In this document: positions 26,173 to 59,038 of the stretch, piece after piece
How positions within the stretch are numbered: the first letter of the stretch is position 1
How the letters are laid out: each line of letters opens with the position of its first letter
Assembly: GCA_963576475.1 (NCBI GenBank)
Contig: OY754990.1
Coordinates: 9,406,921 to 9,470,920 of the forward strand
DNA from: Molanna angustata
Lineage: Eukaryota > Arthropoda > Insecta > Trichoptera > Molannidae
Direction: 5' to 3'
DNA: 64,000 nt
Notes under the pieces: generated by a model
Database searches by the model: none
The model's input: only the letters and a program-made list of their open reading frames with translations
What the model was told of the DNA's origin: nothing
Program-made: the position numbers and the translations under genes

Positions 26173-29468
<3,296 letters not shown>

Positions 29469-29472
29469 CTAT

Positions 29473-29688
29473 TGTACCGAAATTTATATTTATTTATTTT
29501 ATTATGGTTCAAAGTCTTATTTATTTTTACAATTTATATTTCTACAATTTATATTTTTACAAGGTTTGTCTAGTTTTTTTCAACTCACTACTCAAATCTT
29601 TTGTTTTCATTTTTCTTGGGTTCTTATTTTCAAAATATTTCTATTTAAATTTTCAATTTAAATAGAAATAGTACTTAATTTCATAACA
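29473..29688 (-). repeat. 3' LTR (left, minus-strand element)
   Basis: 216 bases, apparently the same as 35198-35413. It is bounded by CTAT on the outside and the polypurine tract on the inside. Confidence 0.95.
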
Positions 29689-29699
29689 CTGCCTCCCTC
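29689..29699 (-). promoter_or_regulatory. Polypurine tract
   Basis: The minus strand reads AGAGGGAGGCAG next to the LTR. The pol stop codon (29700-29702) directly abuts it, leaving no 3' untranslated space. Confidence 0.8.
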
Positions 29700-32600
29700 T
29701 TAGTTCAGTTCGTCCCGAACAGAATTCTCTAGATGAATAAATCGGCATTTCGAACCTTCTCTACAGTGAGATGCTTTGAAAAAGTAACATGGTACACTTT
29801 TTTTTATATTTTTACTGTATCTTGGATTATAGCAGCAAACTAGAACATTAATTCCAGTATTATGAAAAATCTCTTCTATCATATTCCGAACCACTTTCCA
29901 ATCCATACCATCACTGATCTTTGGAATGCCGAGCTTCATAAGATTCAACTGTAACATTTGATCCCGCATACTTCGTAGACAGTTCCACATCTGAGCATAC
30001 TCTGCTCGTTCCTCAGACGTTTCCTTATTCGTCATGTAGAATAAATGCTGTTTTCCATGCTGTGAATGGACCGCTTCTCCAATCTTCAGATTCTTGGCTT
30101 TTAGCTCATATAACATCCCATACTTTCTCATGATAACTTTGGCTATACCACTAGTCATCTTCATGTCTTGAGCCACACAGTAAGCTAAAACATTATCTTC
30201 TGGGATATCGAAGAGGTCTTGCTCAATTTCCACAGTCACACCATGGCGAGTGCGTCGATAAGGAGTCATCATGAATTCCTCGAAGGTCTTTTCTTCACTT
30301 TGGACATTGCAAACTTGAGCAACTGGATTTTTTTCCTCATCCTTGTTATCACCTAAAAAGGGAGCCAGGCGATTGAAATGTACCACTCTTGGCTTCCCAT
30401 TTGGTTTTCTTCGTATACGATAAACCACATCATTAATCCTTTTGATCACTTCATACGGTCCTTCCCAGGATTTCTGAAGCTTTGGTGAGTAGCCTCGTCG
30501 TCGTTGTGGATTAAATAACCAAACCAAGTCTCCAGCCTGATAACCACCTTCCACAGCTTTAATGTCGTATCGCTCCTTCATCTTGTCACTAGCTACTTGA
30601 ATATTGGACCGTACACGGTCATGTATAGCATTCATTTTCCTCCGAAGATCTGACACATAATCTTCTCCAACTAGATCTTCTCCAGGCTTAGATCCATACT
30701 GCAGGTCGCAAGGTAACCGTAACTCACGGCCAAAAATCACACTTGCCGGTGTTTGCCCTGTTGTCTCATGAATAGCTGCTCGATAAGCTAATAAGAACAA
30801 GTGGATGTATTCGTCCCAATCCTTCTGGTGATCGGACACTGCTTTTGACAAAAATCTTCCAATTGTTCGATTCATTCGCTCCACCATTCCATCCGACTGT
30901 GGATGCAAAGCAGTTGTTCTCGTCTTTCGAATTCCTAATGCTTCACAAATTCCCTGGAATACGGCTGATTCAAAGTTTCTTCCCTGGTCCGAGTGTAACT
31001 CCAATGGTACTCCAAAACGACTTATCAGTTCCCTTACCAAGACTTCAGCAACAGTGGTAGCTTCTTGATTCGGTAGTGCATAGGCTTCTGTCCATTTACT
31101 AAAATAGTCCATTGCTACCAGAATATATTTATTCCCTCTTTCCGTTGTGGGAAACGGCCCCGCTATGTCAATGGCTATCCTTTCAAATGGGCTACCAACA
31201 TTATACTGCCTCATTGGCGCACGCCTTCGTTTCTGAGGTCCGTTTGAAGTGGCACAAGTTACACATCTTCTACACCAATCTTTTACATCTCCATTGTAAT
31301 TGACCCAATAAAAACGTTGACGAATTTTTTCTGTGGTTTTTTTAACTCCCAAGTGTCCCCCAGACACATCATTGTGAAGCAGTTTAAGAACTTCAGGAAT
31401 TCTCTTCCTTGGAATCAATAGTTGTTGTCTCTGCTGTGTTCCATCTTCATTCTCCAATACACGCTTTAACAACCCATTTTCCACGACAATGGATTGCCAC
31501 TGAGCCCAGTATGACTTAATATTTGGAGATAGTGAAGCTATTTCTTCCCATAAAGGTCTTTGATCATTTTCCTTCCACTGCATTACAAACTTGAGATCTG
31601 GGTCTTCCAATTGGTCTGCTCGTATTTCATCATCTTGCCAAAAATTGTCAACGACCGTGGTTCTACAAGCTATAAAAAACTTTTCCTCAGCCTTATTACA
31701 GTGCTGGCAATCCTCTGGACATGGTCGCCTTGACAGTGCATCGGCATTTCTATGATGAAGTCCGGCTCGATGTTCAGAATCATAGTCATATTCTTGCAAT
31801 CTCTCTATCCATCTTGCCACTTGACCTTCAGGATTCTTGAATCGCAAAAGCCACACAAGTGCCGAGTGATCTGTCCTTAAAAGAAATTTCCGTCCATATA
31901 AATACTTGCGAAAGTGCTCAACTGACTTGATAACAGCAAGCAATTCTCTTCGTGTTACACAGTAATTGCGTTCTGGTTTCGACAATACTTTACTGAAGTA
32001 AGCAATCACGCGTTCTGCCCCATCTTGTACTTGGGAGAGCACACTTCCGATACCAACGTTACTTGCATCTGTATCCAGAATAAACATTCCTTCAGCTCGA
32101 GGATAACTCAAAACCGGAGAATTAATTAGAACCTGTTTTAATTCTTCAAATGCATGTTGGCACTTGAAATCCCATATGAATTCACTGCTTTCCTCCGTGA
32201 GTTTTGTCAGTGGCTTTGCGATGTCAGCAAAGCCTGGAACAAATCGTCGATAGTAGGTACTCAGACCCAAAAAGCTTCTTACTTCATGTTTGTCTTTAAG
32301 TACTGGCCAATCTCGAACAGCTTTAATCTTCTCAGGATCTACTGCTACTCCCTCCTCAGAGACAACATGACCTAGATAGTTGACTTGCTTTCGGAACAAT
32401 ATACATTTCTTGCAATTGAGTTTAAGGTTGGCCGACCTCAATCGTGAAAATACCTGTTCCAAATTTCCTAAATGTTCTTCAAAACGCTTCCCAAGTACGA
32501 TGATGTCATCTAAGTATACCAAACAGGTCTCCCACGATAATCCTCTTAGCACACTTTCCATTAGTCGTTCAAACGTAGCCGGTGCATTGCAAAGTCCAAA

Positions 32601-33875
32601 TGGCATCACTTTGAATTGCCACAATCCACTTCCAACAGAAAATGCCGTTTTTTCTCTATCCTTGGGTTCCAATCCAACCTGCCAATAACCACTCTTTAGA
32701 TCCAAAGTTGAGAAGATCTTACAACCAGCCAATGTATCTAGGGTGTCATCGATTCGAGGCAGTGGATAACTATCCTTCTTAGTTACATTATTCAATAAGC
32801 GAAAGTCCACACAGAACCGAGTTGAGCCATCTTTTTTTTTAACTAACACTACTGGTGAACACCATGGGCTGCTTGATGGTTCAATAACGCTATCCCTTTC
32901 CATGTCTTGAATAATTTGATCTGCTTCCGCCCGCTTTGCTAATGGTAGCCTTCTAGGTAATTGGCGGATAGGCCTTGCGTCACCCGTATCTATTTGATGT
33001 TGAACAACATTGGTTCTTCCTTTAGAAAGACTCGCATTCTCAAAAACATCTTGATAATGAGCAATGAGGTATCTAATTTGTTTGCTTTGTTCTTTGGTAA
33101 GTTCCTTACAAGCATCTTTTACAAAGTCTTCAAGATGTTTTGGTACATCCTCTGAAGAAACTTGTGCGATGCAGGCATTTTGTGTTACTGATGAAACTGA
33201 TGAACACACACTTAAATAAGCTCCTTTTTTGACAGTTACTGGATATTCATTTATGTTCATTAATCTGACTAAAATTTCCTTTTGGTTTTGAATCAGTGCT
33301 CTTGCAATTAATACTCCTTTTCCTGCTTCATTGTTGGCGTTGGACTCCACAACCAAAACATGTCCATTCGGGATAACACAGTCTAAATTGACTCGTACTA
33401 ACATCTCACTTTGTTTTGGAATAGTTACAACATCCGCTGCAAGAACACGTGTAGAAAATTCCTCACGCTCTTGCACGAGAACATCTTCATCTCCAATTTT
33501 CAAAGATCGCCTCTTTAGATCCAACTGGAATCCATATTTCGCCATTATGTCCATTCCGAGAATAACTTCCTCCTCTATATTCGCCACTAGCACCTGATGA
33601 TCGAAGATAGAACTACCAATTTGAAAGTTGGCATATGTCTCACCACATATAGATGCCGACTCCCCAGTAGCTGTTCGTAATGTCCATTTAGTTGGTGTAA
33701 TACACTTTTTGTTATAAAGCAAATCTGGTCTCATGATTGTCATCGTTGCTCCAGTATCCAGCAAAAGTTTCAAATTCTTTCCATTTACTTTGCCATTTAT
33801 AAACATACTGGTATCTCGACCACTGAATGATGCAACAACTGCAGATCTCTTTGAGGCATTGGTAATGTAGGTCAA
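29700..33875 (-). CDS. Pol polyprotein: PR-RT-RNase H-integrase-macrodomain-CCCH
   Basis: 1391 codons are open. Protease: LLDTGAT at residues 38-44 and ILGMD at 105-109. Reverse transcriptase: about 320-500, with CVDFRLLN and the YLDD catalytic motif at 454-457. RNase H: about 598-715 with D603, E644, D669 and the NADALSRR end. Integrase: H834/H841/C871/C874 zinc region, then the D903-D963-E999 catalytic triad and a GPY-like tail (KSWEGPYEVI, 1136-1144). Beyond the normal end lies a macrodomain at about 1215-1350 and a C-x7-C-x5-C-x3-H finger at 1363-1381. The first codon of the frame given here is TTG, not ATG, and the frame stays open upstream into gag in the -1 register, so Pol is probably made as Gag-Pol by -1 frameshifting. 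It would act in cytoplasmic particles, then in the nucleus at integration. The extra domains are seen directly; their function is inferred. Confidence 0.96.
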   Translation of the reverse strand: MTYITNASKRSAVVASFSGRDTSMFINGKVNGKNLKLLLDTGATMTIMRPDLLYNKKCITPTKWTLRTATGESASICGETYANFQIGSSIFDHQVLVANIEEEVILGMDIMAKYGFQLDLKRRSLKIGDEDVLVQEREEFSTRVLAADVVTIPKQSEMLVRVNLDCVIPNGHVLVVESNANNEAGKGVLIARALIQNQKEILVRLMNINEYPVTVKKGAYLSVCSSVSSVTQNACIAQVSSEDVPKHLEDFVKDACKELTKEQSKQIRYLIAHYQDVFENASLSKGRTNVVQHQIDTGDARPIRQLPRRLPLAKRAEADQIIQDMERDSVIEPSSSPWCSPVVLVKKKDGSTRFCVDFRLLNNVTKKDSYPLPRIDDTLDTLAGCKIFSTLDLKSGYWQVGLEPKDREKTAFSVGSGLWQFKVMPFGLCNAPATFERLMESVLRGLSWETCLVYLDDIIVLGKRFEEHLGNLEQVFSRLRSANLKLNCKKCILFRKQVNYLGHVVSEEGVAVDPEKIKAVRDWPVLKDKHEVRSFLGLSTYYRRFVPGFADIAKPLTKLTEESSEFIWDFKCQHAFEELKQVLINSPVLSYPRAEGMFILDTDASNVGIGSVLSQVQDGAERVIAYFSKVLSKPERNYCVTRRELLAVIKSVEHFRKYLYGRKFLLRTDHSALVWLLRFKNPEGQVARWIERLQEYDYDSEHRAGLHHRNADALSRRPCPEDCQHCNKAEEKFFIACRTTVVDNFWQDDEIRADQLEDPDLKFVMQWKENDQRPLWEEIASLSPNIKSYWAQWQSIVVENGLLKRVLENEDGTQQRQQLLIPRKRIPEVLKLLHNDVSGGHLGVKKTTEKIRQRFYWVNYNGDVKDWCRRCVTCATSNGPQKRRRAPMRQYNVGSPFERIAIDIAGPFPTTERGNKYILVAMDYFSKWTEAYALPNQEATTVAEVLVRELISRFGVPLELHSDQGRNFESAVFQGICEALGIRKTRTTALHPQSDGMVERMNRTIGRFLSKAVSDHQKDWDEYIHLFLLAYRAAIHETTGQTPASVIFGRELRLPCDLQYGSKPGEDLVGEDYVSDLRRKMNAIHDRVRSNIQVASDKMKERYDIKAVEGGYQAGDLVWLFNPQRRRGYSPKLQKSWEGPYEVIKRINDVVYRIRRKPNGKPRVVHFNRLAPFLGDNKDEEKNPVAQVCNVQSEEKTFEEFMMTPYRRTRHGVTVEIEQDLFDIPEDNVLAYCVAQDMKMTSGIAKVIMRKYGMLYELKAKNLKIGEAVHSQHGKQHLFYMTNKETSEERAEYAQMWNCLRSMRDQMLQLNLMKLGIPKISDGMDWKVVRNMIEEIFHNTGINVLVCCYNPRYSKNIKKSVPCYFFKASHCREGSKCRFIHLENSVRDELN
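29733..29789 (-). other. CCCH zinc-finger region of Pol
   Basis: Residues 1363-1381 have the spacing C-x7-C-x5-C-x3-H with an aromatic just before the last His, the standard CCCH type found in RNA-binding proteins. It lies ten residues before the end of Pol, after a basic linker. RNA binding is inferred from the family. Confidence 0.8.
29826..30233 (-). other. TARG1/OARD1-like macrodomain of Pol
   Basis: Residues about 1215-1350 follow the TARG1-type macrodomain from end to end: the 'DLF' strand, 'LAYCVAQDMKMTSGIA' with the GIA loop that grips ADP-ribose, 'KYG', 'GEAV', 'LFYMTNKET', 'MKLGIPKISDGMD' and 'MIEEIF...INVLV'. The Asp matching the catalytic Asp of TARG1 (after G-hydrophobic, D1325) is kept. 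At the catalytic Lys position an ungapped alignment gives Asn1283 with Lys1284 next to it, so activity is uncertain. Known members bind ADP-ribose and remove it from proteins or nucleic acids. It could be a captured host gene (inference). Confidence 0.85.
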
Positions 33876-33901
33876 CAGTTGCCCCTTCCCATCAACCCTT
33901 T

Positions 33902-35101
33902 TTAGTTTTCCTGTGGCTGTTGCTGTTGCGTTGTTGCTTCATTTGGACACCGATTACGTAGATGTCCAGCTCGTCCACAACCCCAGCAGCGAAACTGTCT
34001 TTTTCTTCCTTGCAATGCCTTCATCACCTTTTCGACAATGCATTCGATGAGTTTTTGATTCTCTTCAACGGCCTCAACAACGCGGGCTTGAGCATGACCT
34101 CGTAAAGATTTTTTTATAGATTCAAATTCGAGTGCCTGGGTTAGAGCGTCACTCAAAGTTTGTGGTCTAGCTAGTTTTACAGCTTGTTGTGTCTCATTTG
34201 CCCACAATCCATCCAAGAACTTTTCTACTGCAAGGCTTTCACACACATCATCAGGAACCGTAGGGTATGCATATCTAATTAGACGCGCTATATCCGCCTC
34301 AAATTCCTGGAGAGTTTCATTAGATTTCTGATTACGATTCTTAAGTTGTGACCTGTAAAACTGTTCCATGTGCTTATGTCCAAATCGCATCTCAAGTCTC
34401 TCAATCAACAATTTTAAATCTCGTCGCTCAGCTAGAGGAATTGTCTCCAAAACTTTTAAAGCATCACCTCGTAATGATACACTCAACACTGAGGCCTTTC
34501 TTGTCATGGACCAGCCATTTATCATGGCCACTGTCTCGAACAATGTTAAATATTCTTCCCAGGGGCATTTTCCATCAAAGGTTGGCATATCATTTCGCAC
34601 GCACTCCACTGTTGGTACTCTTGTATCTTCTACACACTTAAAATTTGTATCTACAGCTGAATTTTGCTCGGAATTCATTGGCGTGATTGAAGGAAGCACT
34701 TGATTCTCCAAAACTTTCATCTGTTTAGTTAATTTATTTATCTTCTCATCAAAGGTCATAGAATAATTCTCGAATTTCTTTTCTATAGTATTTGAATGCT
34801 TTTGAAGCATCGCTACTTCTCCTTTGATTTCTTTAATTTCTCCTTTTATATCTCTGGAATGTTCTTGAAACTTCTCTTCTATGTCTCTGGAATGTTCTTT
34901 TAAGACTTGACAAAGATCGTTGTTAGAGCAAGGCATTTCAAAAAGGTATGTGTCTGGATCCTCACCTACTTCTTGCATCACTTTTCTCAATCGTAGTTGA
35001 AGTGCATTTTTATTTCCTGATGTATCAGCGTCTCTCTCCTCCAACTCATGTTTTAAATCAACCACTTTCAACTCTAAAAGAGTTATTTTTTTTGATGCCA
35101 T
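33902..35101 (-). CDS. Gag with SAP-like motif, coiled coil, capsid and CCHC knuckle
   Basis: 399 residues from the ATG at 35101. Residues about 7-42 (LLELKVVDLKHELEERD, then GNKNALQLRL) fit a SAP motif, a small DNA/chromatin-binding fold rarely noted in Gag. Residues about 65-140 are heptad-rich with repeated EHSRDI and EIK words, a likely coiled coil. About 170-345 is the capsid-like region (FDGKCPWEEYLTLFE, then the YRSQLKNR / ETLQEFEADI / FLDGL pattern of metavirus Gags). The nucleocapsid knuckle is C372-x2-C375-x4-H380-x4-C385, followed by a Gln-rich tail. It overlaps the open upstream part of pol in the -1 frame; its stop lies 26 bases before the first listed pol codon. It should form the particle and bind the genome RNA. 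Confidence 0.93.
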   Translation of the reverse strand: MASKKITLLELKVVDLKHELEERDADTSGNKNALQLRLRKVMQEVGEDPDTYLFEMPCSNNDLCQVLKEHSRDIEEKFQEHSRDIKGEIKEIKGEVAMLQKHSNTIEKKFENYSMTFDEKINKLTKQMKVLENQVLPSITPMNSEQNSAVDTNFKCVEDTRVPTVECVRNDMPTFDGKCPWEEYLTLFETVAMINGWSMTRKASVLSVSLRGDALKVLETIPLAERRDLKLLIERLEMRFGHKHMEQFYRSQLKNRNQKSNETLQEFEADIARLIRYAYPTVPDDVCESLAVEKFLDGLWANETQQAVKLARPQTLSDALTQALEFESIKKSLRGHAQARVVEAVEENQKLIECIVEKVMKALQGRKRQFRCWGCGRAGHLRNRCPNEATTQQQQPQEN

Positions 35102-35178
35102 AATAAATGTCTTTATAAATAACTATTTCATTTTATTTTATTTTTTTCTTACACAAAAAATACTTGGGTATTTTTATA

Positions 35179-35195
35179 CCCCACACCTGACACCA
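35179..35195 (-). promoter_or_regulatory. Primer-binding site
   Basis: The minus strand reads TGGTGTCAGGTGTGGGG two bases after the 5' LTR. It shares its first nine bases with the primer site of the element at 7459-16703. The tRNA was not identified. Confidence 0.75.
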
Positions 35196-35197
35196 AA

Positions 35198-35413
35198 TGT
35201 ACCGAAATTTATATTTATTTATTTTATTATGGTTCAAAGTCTTATTTATTTTTACAATTTATATTTCTACAATTTATATTTTTACAAGGTTTGTCTAGTT
35301 TTTTTCAACTCACTACTCAAATCTTTTGTTTTCATTTTTCTTGGGTTCTTATTTTCAAAATATTTCTATTTAAATTTTCAATTTAAATAGAAATAGTACT
35401 TAATTTCATAACA
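35198..35413 (-). repeat. 5' LTR (right, minus-strand element)
   Basis: 216 bases, starting the element on the minus strand, and followed outside by CTAT. The LTR is AT-rich and I cannot place a TATA box with certainty. Confidence 0.95.
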
Positions 35414-35417
35414 CTAT

Positions 35418-58615: not shown

Positions 58616-58715
58616 ATCTCATTGATGAAGATGCAGAACGAAGTGATCATTGTCTGTCGTTAATTGAAAGAGGAATGCAAAGTTCGGAGAGGTAAGTAGG
58701 AGCCATACCGTGCGG
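58616..58715 (-). repeat. Duplicate piece of the L2-like LINE
   Basis: Repeats 58218-58315 in the same orientation (GATGAAGATGCAGAACGAAG ... GGTAAGTAGGAGCCATACC) with few changes. It ends just before the Penelope-like fragment. Confidence 0.85.
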
Positions 58716-58723
58716 AACATAGA

Positions 58724-59038
58724 ATGGATGGCAGTGGAGTGTATAAATTAAATTGTAAAGACTGTGATGCCATTTATGTGGGTCAGACTGGGAGATCTAT
58801 AAAACAGCGTTTCCTTGAGCATCATAGAGCGTTTAGGGGACTGTCTGGTTATTCAGAAATGGCGGACCACTGCATAGAACATAATCATTCTTTTGGTTTG
58901 GGAAATGTAGAGGTTTTGCATTCAGAATATAAAGGATGGAAACTTGACGCTGTAGAAATGTTAGAAATTAATAAAAATAAAAAAGGCAACATTGTTAATA
59001 TCCAGATACCAAAGGTATCGCCACTTCTCCAAAAATAA
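58724..59038 (+). pseudogene. Penelope-like element GIY-YIG endonuclease fragment
   Basis: A 104-codon frame has 'GVYKLNCKDCDAIYVGQTGR', the GIY-YIG motif with the CxxC insert typical of Penelope-like retroelements, then 'IKQRFLEH' and 'MADHCIEHNHSF'. The upstream reverse transcriptase is missing, so the copy is 5'-truncated. Downstream (59170-59270) GGCGAAAACGTTCGGTCGTT and an A-rich stretch resemble a Penelope terminus. Confidence 0.88.

What the first reader, a model, noticed from the sequence alone, without database searches (positions are those of the whole stretch)
29733..30233. A retrotransposon Pol that ends in a TARG1-like macrodomain and a CCCH zinc finger
Seen: one unbroken frame runs from protease to integrase and on into about 135 residues that follow a TARG1/OARD1-type macrodomain, then C-x7-C-x5-C-x3-H. 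Established: TARG1-type macrodomains remove ADP-ribose, and viral macrodomains counter host PARP defences; CCCH fingers bind RNA and occur in the antiviral protein ZAP/PARP13. Inference: the element may have captured host domains to resist ADP-ribosylation-based restriction, or uses them in integration-site repair. The Asp at the catalytic position is kept (D1325); the Lys position reads Asn1283-Lys1284, so activity is open. I cannot say whether such elements have been described.
Basis: partly seen in the sequence, partly recalled or inferred. Interest (0 to 1): 0.93.

Follow-up and report, generated by a model that had tools for sequence, protein, structure and literature searches.

The report
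Retrotransposon Pol with ADP-ribose-binding-type tail
A young, high-copy jumping gene carries, fused to the end of its integrase, a relative of the animal enzyme TARG1 that removes ADP-ribose, and other jumping-gene families in the same genome carry a related domain at another place, which suggests that such elements have drawn on the ADP-ribose system more than once.

The parts
29469..29472 (-). target-site duplication, 3' side (ATAG on the minus strand)
   Evidence: sequence
29473..29688 (-). 3' LTR, 216 bp, TG...CA
   Evidence: identical to the 5' LTR
29689..29699 (-). polypurine tract GAGGGAGGCAG
   Evidence: sequence; the same place in the 8 copies with both LTRs, one with a base change
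29700..33938 (-). Pol frame, 1412 aa stop to stop, with a C-terminal macrodomain and CCCH finger
   Evidence: 82 of 150 scored copies show exactly 1412 aa (table, counted)
29733..29789 (-). CCCH zinc finger (C-x7-C-x5-C-x3-H)
   Evidence: Pfam zf-CCCH 21.2 bits, cut-off 20.5
29829..30236 (-). TARG1/OARD1-type macrodomain (tail residues about 31-166)
29901..29903 (-). Asp at the TARG1 D125 position (tail D142)
30024..30026 (-). Lys at the TARG1 K84 position (tail K101)
30237..30359 (-). linker between integrase C-terminal domain and macrodomain
30360..31415 (-). integrase: H2C2, rve core, p58-type C-terminal domain
   Evidence: Pfam
31845..32174 (-). RNase H
   Evidence: Pfam
32364..32843 (-). 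reverse transcriptase
   Evidence: Pfam RVT_1 4e-37
33543..33800 (-). aspartic protease
   Evidence: Pfam gag-asp_proteas 2.6e-10
33902..35101 (-). gag, N-terminal SAP domain, C-terminal CCHC knuckle; overlaps pol in the -1 frame
   Evidence: SAP 1e-7; the CCHC is visible in the sequence but below Pfam's cut-off
35179..35195 (-). primer-binding site TGGTGTCAGGTGTGGGG
   Evidence: position after the 5' LTR; which tRNA it fits was not tested
35198..35413 (-). 5' LTR, 216 bp
35414..35417 (-). target-site duplication, 5' side (ATAG)

Best explanation
Shown: this is a complete, recently inserted Ty3/gypsy LTR retrotransposon of a high-copy family whose Pol ends in a TARG1-type macrodomain and a CCCH finger, directly behind the integrase C-terminal domain. 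Inferred: the tail is an ADP-ribose-recognising module carried by integrase. It would bring the integration complex to, or keep it at, ADP-ribosylated chromatin or DNA ends (PARP-marked breaks and gaps), with the CCCH finger adding nucleic-acid contact. This resembles the way a chromodomain at the same end of other Ty3/gypsy integrases reads histone marks (recalled). It may also still remove ADP-ribose from cDNA ends or integrase, since the Lys-Asp dyad is kept. Likelihoods: identity about 0.97, ADP-ribose recognition on integrase about 0.45, true hydrolysis about 0.3.
Against: No binding or activity data. The same changes that weaken catalysis could weaken binding: the GxG loop holds the phosphates (PMC6397177 passage). 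The copies are so young that conservation of the tail says little: 12 non-synonymous to 5 synonymous variants, window-only codon 192 left out, against an expectation without selection of 2.9-4.1 to 1. The confident model rests on OARD1 rows; with two retroelement rows alone confidence was poor (pLDDT 47). The CCCH region is not modelled (pLDDT under 50). Pfam's general Macro model stays below its cut-off.
Confidence: 0.45

Rival explanations
1. Eraser: the tail is an active glycohydrolase that removes ADP-ribose from the element's single-stranded cDNA, its unligated ends, or from Gag and Pol, countering host PARPs.
For: K84 and D125 equivalents kept in all 28 ungapped sampled tails and in P0001. 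TARG1 and DarG reverse thymidine-linked DNA ADP-ribosylation and need this Lys (PMC8501950 passages). PARP1 adds ADP-ribose to single-stranded DNA at unligated telomeric Okazaki fragments and TARG1 removes it (PMC11102865 passages); reverse transcription and integration leave similar gaps (inference).
Against: Fails the published TARG1 pattern at T83 and the first Gly of GxG, while 116 of 119 OARD1 rows and two of four phage homologues meet it. S35 is Ala and the loop after D125 is three residues shorter.
Confidence: 0.3
2. Structural passenger: the domain stabilises or spaces integrase, or is carried along without any ADP-ribose function.
For: Loss of Lys or Asp in internal macrodomains of other families with long open frames; no selection signal in the tail.
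Against: K84 and D125 equivalents remain in the window family although it is only about 30% identical to OARD1; the L044 family keeps S35, TK and GxGxD equivalents.
Confidence: 0.22
3. Chance resemblance or assembly artefact: a host gene fused to one copy.
For: Pfam's Macro model alone is below its cut-off.
Against: At least 150 copies on many contigs with identical tails, 82 of them in 1412-aa frames, a metagenomic copy, shuffles.
Confidence: 0.01

Closest known systems
Animal TARG1/OARD1 (C6orf130), terminal ADP-ribose glycohydrolase
   Different: Fused to a retroelement Pol with a CCCH finger; S35, T83 and the GxG loop changed; three-residue deletion; published pattern not met
Macro-domain ORFs in ray-finned fish epsilon-like endogenous retroviruses (Basta et al. 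2009, seen only as cited in PMC4977317)
   Same: A retroelement carrying a macro domain
   Different: Described there as additional ORFs of vertebrate retroviruses; here one frame with Pol of a Ty3/gypsy element, behind integrase. Sequences not compared
Internal macrodomains of other Ty3/gypsy families in this genome (L044, L093, L097, L048)
   Same: TARG1-like macrodomain inside Pol (4.8e-18 for L044)
   Different: Lies between RNase H and integrase; 21-22% identical to the tail; Lys or Asp lost in several
Chromovirus integrase chromodomain (recalled)
   Same: A reader-type domain at the integrase C-terminus of Ty3/gypsy elements
   Different: No chromodomain match in the four Pol pieces scanned at E up to 1
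DarG macrodomain and phage homologues
   Different: Antitoxin (DarG) or separate phage proteins, not part of a retroelement Pol

Membership tests
Ty3/gypsy LTR retrotransposon | LTR pair, TSD, PBS, PPT | tested here: met
   216-bp identical LTRs TG..CA, 4-bp ATAG duplication, PPT and PBS by position
Ty3/gypsy LTR retrotransposon | Pol order protease-RT-RNase H-integrase | tested here: met
   Pfam
Errantivirus (env-bearing gypsy) | env ORF between pol and 3' LTR | tested here: not met
   only 11 bp lie between the Pol stop codon and the 3' LTR
Chromovirus | chromodomain at the integrase C-terminus | tested here: not met
   no chromo match at E up to 1
TARG1-type macrodomain | TARG1 fold | tested here: met
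TARG1-type macrodomain | catalytic dyad K84 and D125 | tested here: met
TARG1-type macrodomain | published pattern TKx(30,35)Px[IL]GxGxD (PMC6397177) | tested here: not met
   N for T and S for the first G; spacing fits
TARG1-type macrodomain | ADP-ribose binding and hydrolysis | not testable with these tools
   needs protein
CCCH zinc finger | C-x7/8-C-x5-C-x3-H | tested here: met
   Pfam zf-CCCH above cut-off
CCCH zinc finger | RNA binding | not testable with these tools
   needs protein

The most novel reading that the evidence does not exclude
Ty3/gypsy Pol proteins have acquired TARG1-type macrodomains at least twice, at two different places (behind integrase, and between RNase H and integrase). 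Their job is to read or erase ADP-ribose at PARP-marked DNA, so that ADP-ribose acts as a guide or a barrier for retrotransposon integration, comparable to histone marks read by integrase chromodomains.
Probability: 0.35. Interest if true: 0.88.

Novelty: new variant of a known kind. Interest (0 to 1): 0.73.

Why it matters
If the domain binds or removes ADP-ribose, it links PARP signalling directly to integration of a mobile element, and makes the role of ADP-ribosylation in retrotransposon control testable with one natural fusion protein. The family is young and abundant, so insertion sites can be compared with chromatin marks. Related macrodomains at a second Pol position in the same genome offer an internal comparison between forms with and without catalytic residues.

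Tried and rejected
Dead ends. Protein search for long Pol proteins (451-1435 aa) with this tail: 184 candidates, none at E 1e-3. The 177-aa tail piece alone: 9 candidates, only P0001. With human TARG1 added: 892 of 1055 candidates at E 1e-3, of which only the best 120 were listed, P0001 and 119 OARD1-type proteins; the other 772 were not seen. Viral-contig scans with the tail, the tail plus TARG1, the integrase piece and the internal macrodomain found no relative; genome contigs neither. Phylogeny: the tail and the internal macrodomains sit on branches of about 5-8 changes per column, so the donor is not settled. In one tree the tail fell, weakly, beside an OARD1 row and three phage rows, in the other with OARD1 at 85/80 and the two internal ones apart at 98/95. 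Two-row AlphaFold model inconclusive. Host OARD1: not seen with coelacanth OARD1 (150 of 489 candidates scored, all copies of this family as far as places and identities show), Pfam Macro (three matches, which I read as MACROD-like and GDAP2-like genes), a PRIGCGLD DNA pattern (none) or the C-terminal half of OARD1 (retroelements only); introns or swamping could hide it, so absence is not shown. Selection on the tail: no signal. Rejected: single-copy artefact. In print: searches of the held open library showed no Ty3/gypsy Pol with a macrodomain; one search listed 25 of 13,650 papers and one search listed 10 of 15. The one relevant find was the fish retrovirus review. A review of viral macrodomains (PMC7729036, passages) has no occurrence of retrotransposon or retroelement.

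Full report
What is there. The minus strand at 29469-35417 holds a complete LTR retrotransposon. The two 216-bp LTRs are identical, start with TG and end with CA, and are flanked by a 4-bp duplication ATAG. A purine tract precedes the 3' LTR and a primer-binding site follows the 5' LTR. Gag (33902-35101) starts with a SAP domain (1e-7), ends with a CCHC knuckle, and overlaps a 1412-aa Pol frame in the -1 frame. Pol has protease, RT, RNase H and integrase in Ty3/gypsy order. There is no env: only 11 bp lie between the Pol stop codon and the 3' LTR.

Active site. In the passages seen of PMC6397177, TARG1 uses K84 as nucleophile and D125 to resolve the adduct, S35 and T83 near the distal ribose, and a GxG loop for the phosphates. 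Here Lys and Asp are kept (tail K101, D142; Pol K1305, D1346), while S35 is Ala, T83 is Asn, GxG is SxG, and three residues after the Asp are missing. The paper's pattern TKx(30,35)Px[IL]GxGxD is not met by the window or P0001; 116 of 119 OARD1 rows and two of four phage homologues meet it.

The family. The host assembly has 994,815,102 bases in 131 contigs. The tail had 547 candidates; 150 were scored and all 150 are identical over 208 residues without stops. Of these, 82 lie in frames of exactly 1412 aa. These are the best-ranked copies, so they overstate conservation. A sample chosen by gag DNA (40 scored of 425 candidates, all 100% over 400 bp and all on C1-C3) does not depend on the tail. 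At the expected distance 31 of 40 had a full tail, 2 a partial one and 7 none. For each of those 7, a tail on the same strand within about 10 kb is listed, so these look like shifts rather than losses. Three of the 31 had gaps; the other 28 all lacked stops and kept K101 and D142. Variants were 12 non-synonymous and 5 synonymous, leaving out codon 192, where the window alone differs; the expectation without selection is 2.9-4.1 to 1, so there is no selection signal. Of ten copies whose LTRs I fetched, both LTRs were found in eight. The pairs differ by 0 or 1 substitution in about 215 bp; one pair also differs by 36 gap columns. Flanks match over 4 bp in six, over 5 bp in one and not at all in one. 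The family is thus very young. Outside the host, one metagenomic protein (P0001, 242 aa, 98%) has the same junction.

Internal macrodomains. Searching the genome with the C-terminal half of coelacanth OARD1 (473 candidates, 150 scored) gave five matches, all in other Ty3/gypsy Pol frames. Four copies (L044-L047) are 99.9-100% alike over 2796 bp, and their macrodomain lies between RNase H and integrase: TARG1 at 4.8e-18, Pfam Macro 24.3 bits, over its cut-off of 22. This form keeps S35, TK, GxG and D125 equivalents, though Ser stands for the pattern's Pro. Searching with that domain (489 candidates, 150 scored) gave 23 matches at 74 bits or more: 4 at 100%, 4 at 51%, 10 at 47-48%, and 5 at 42-50%, four of these partial; 19 of the 23 have no stop in the matched stretch. 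The other 127 have 23-25% identity and at most 48 bits; those I compared lie where searches place window-family tails. In the 51% group (L093-L096) the Lys is Ala with the Asp kept. In the 47-48% group (3 of 10 read: L097, L098, L101) the Asp is gone with the Lys kept. In L048, which is followed by an env-like frame (my reading of the sequence), the Asp is also gone. RNase H and H2C2 integrase sequence flank the domain in 7 of the 9 loci read; two break off after it. Pfam confirmed both neighbours for L044. The window's Pol has no macrodomain there; its RT is 51% and its integrase 34% identical to L044's, and the two macrodomains are 22% identical. The tree puts the internal ones together (98/95) and the tail with OARD1 (85/80), on very long branches; the tree left the tail's place open. 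Two acquisitions are likely but not proven.

Mechanism. Two readings fit. As eraser, the tail would remove ADP-ribose from single-stranded or nicked DNA, or from proteins. TARG1 reverses thymidine-ADP-ribose and needs its Lys (PMC8501950 passages), and clears PARP1-made ADP-ribose from unligated telomeric fragments (PMC11102865 passages). As reader, the tail would tether integrase to PARP-marked sites, at the place where chromoviruses carry a chromodomain (recalled). The eroded ribose and phosphate positions, and the loss of catalytic residues in internal relatives with long open frames, favour recognition; the kept dyad favours turnover. I rank reader over eraser over passenger, with modest confidence.

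Prior knowledge. Macro-domain ORFs in fish epsilon-like retroviruses are cited in a review (PMC4977317, passages seen; the original paper was not held). Bdelloid LTR elements with extra enzyme ORFs are a parallel (PMC5408684, abstract and passages; no mention of macro domains there). Eight searches of the held open library showed no Ty3/gypsy Pol with a macrodomain; subscription papers and preprints are not covered, and two of the lists were capped, so it may be described elsewhere.

Noticed in passing
L044:1309-1707, L093-L096, L097, L098, L101, L048: Other Ty3/gypsy families of the same genome carry a TARG1-like macrodomain between RNase H and integrase; Lys or Asp of the catalytic dyad is lost in several of them.
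   Followed up: partly
33902-35101: Gag of the window element begins with a SAP domain (Pfam 1e-7).
   Followed up: no
G000 C3:27736094 and C1:49813978: Two copies show open frames of 1802 and 1807 aa in place of 1412, perhaps gag and pol in one frame.
   Followed up: no
L048:3259-4101: An env-like frame follows Pol in one copy with an internal macrodomain, so that family looks errantivirus-like (my reading).
   Followed up: no
28624-29035: About 410 bp of (TA)n repeat near the element.
   Followed up: no
58703-59035: GIY-YIG domain just at Pfam's cut-off (22.6 bits), possibly a Penelope-like fragment.
   Followed up: no
model m07bc0aec22f0 against BFVD: Best viral fold match is VP8 of Kadipiro virus (2e-12), and several thrips-associated flavi-, negev- and virga-like viruses follow; a viral donor of the domain is possible.
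   Followed up: no
whole genome G000: No separate host OARD1 gene was seen with four kinds of query; introns or swamping by copies could hide it.
   Followed up: partly
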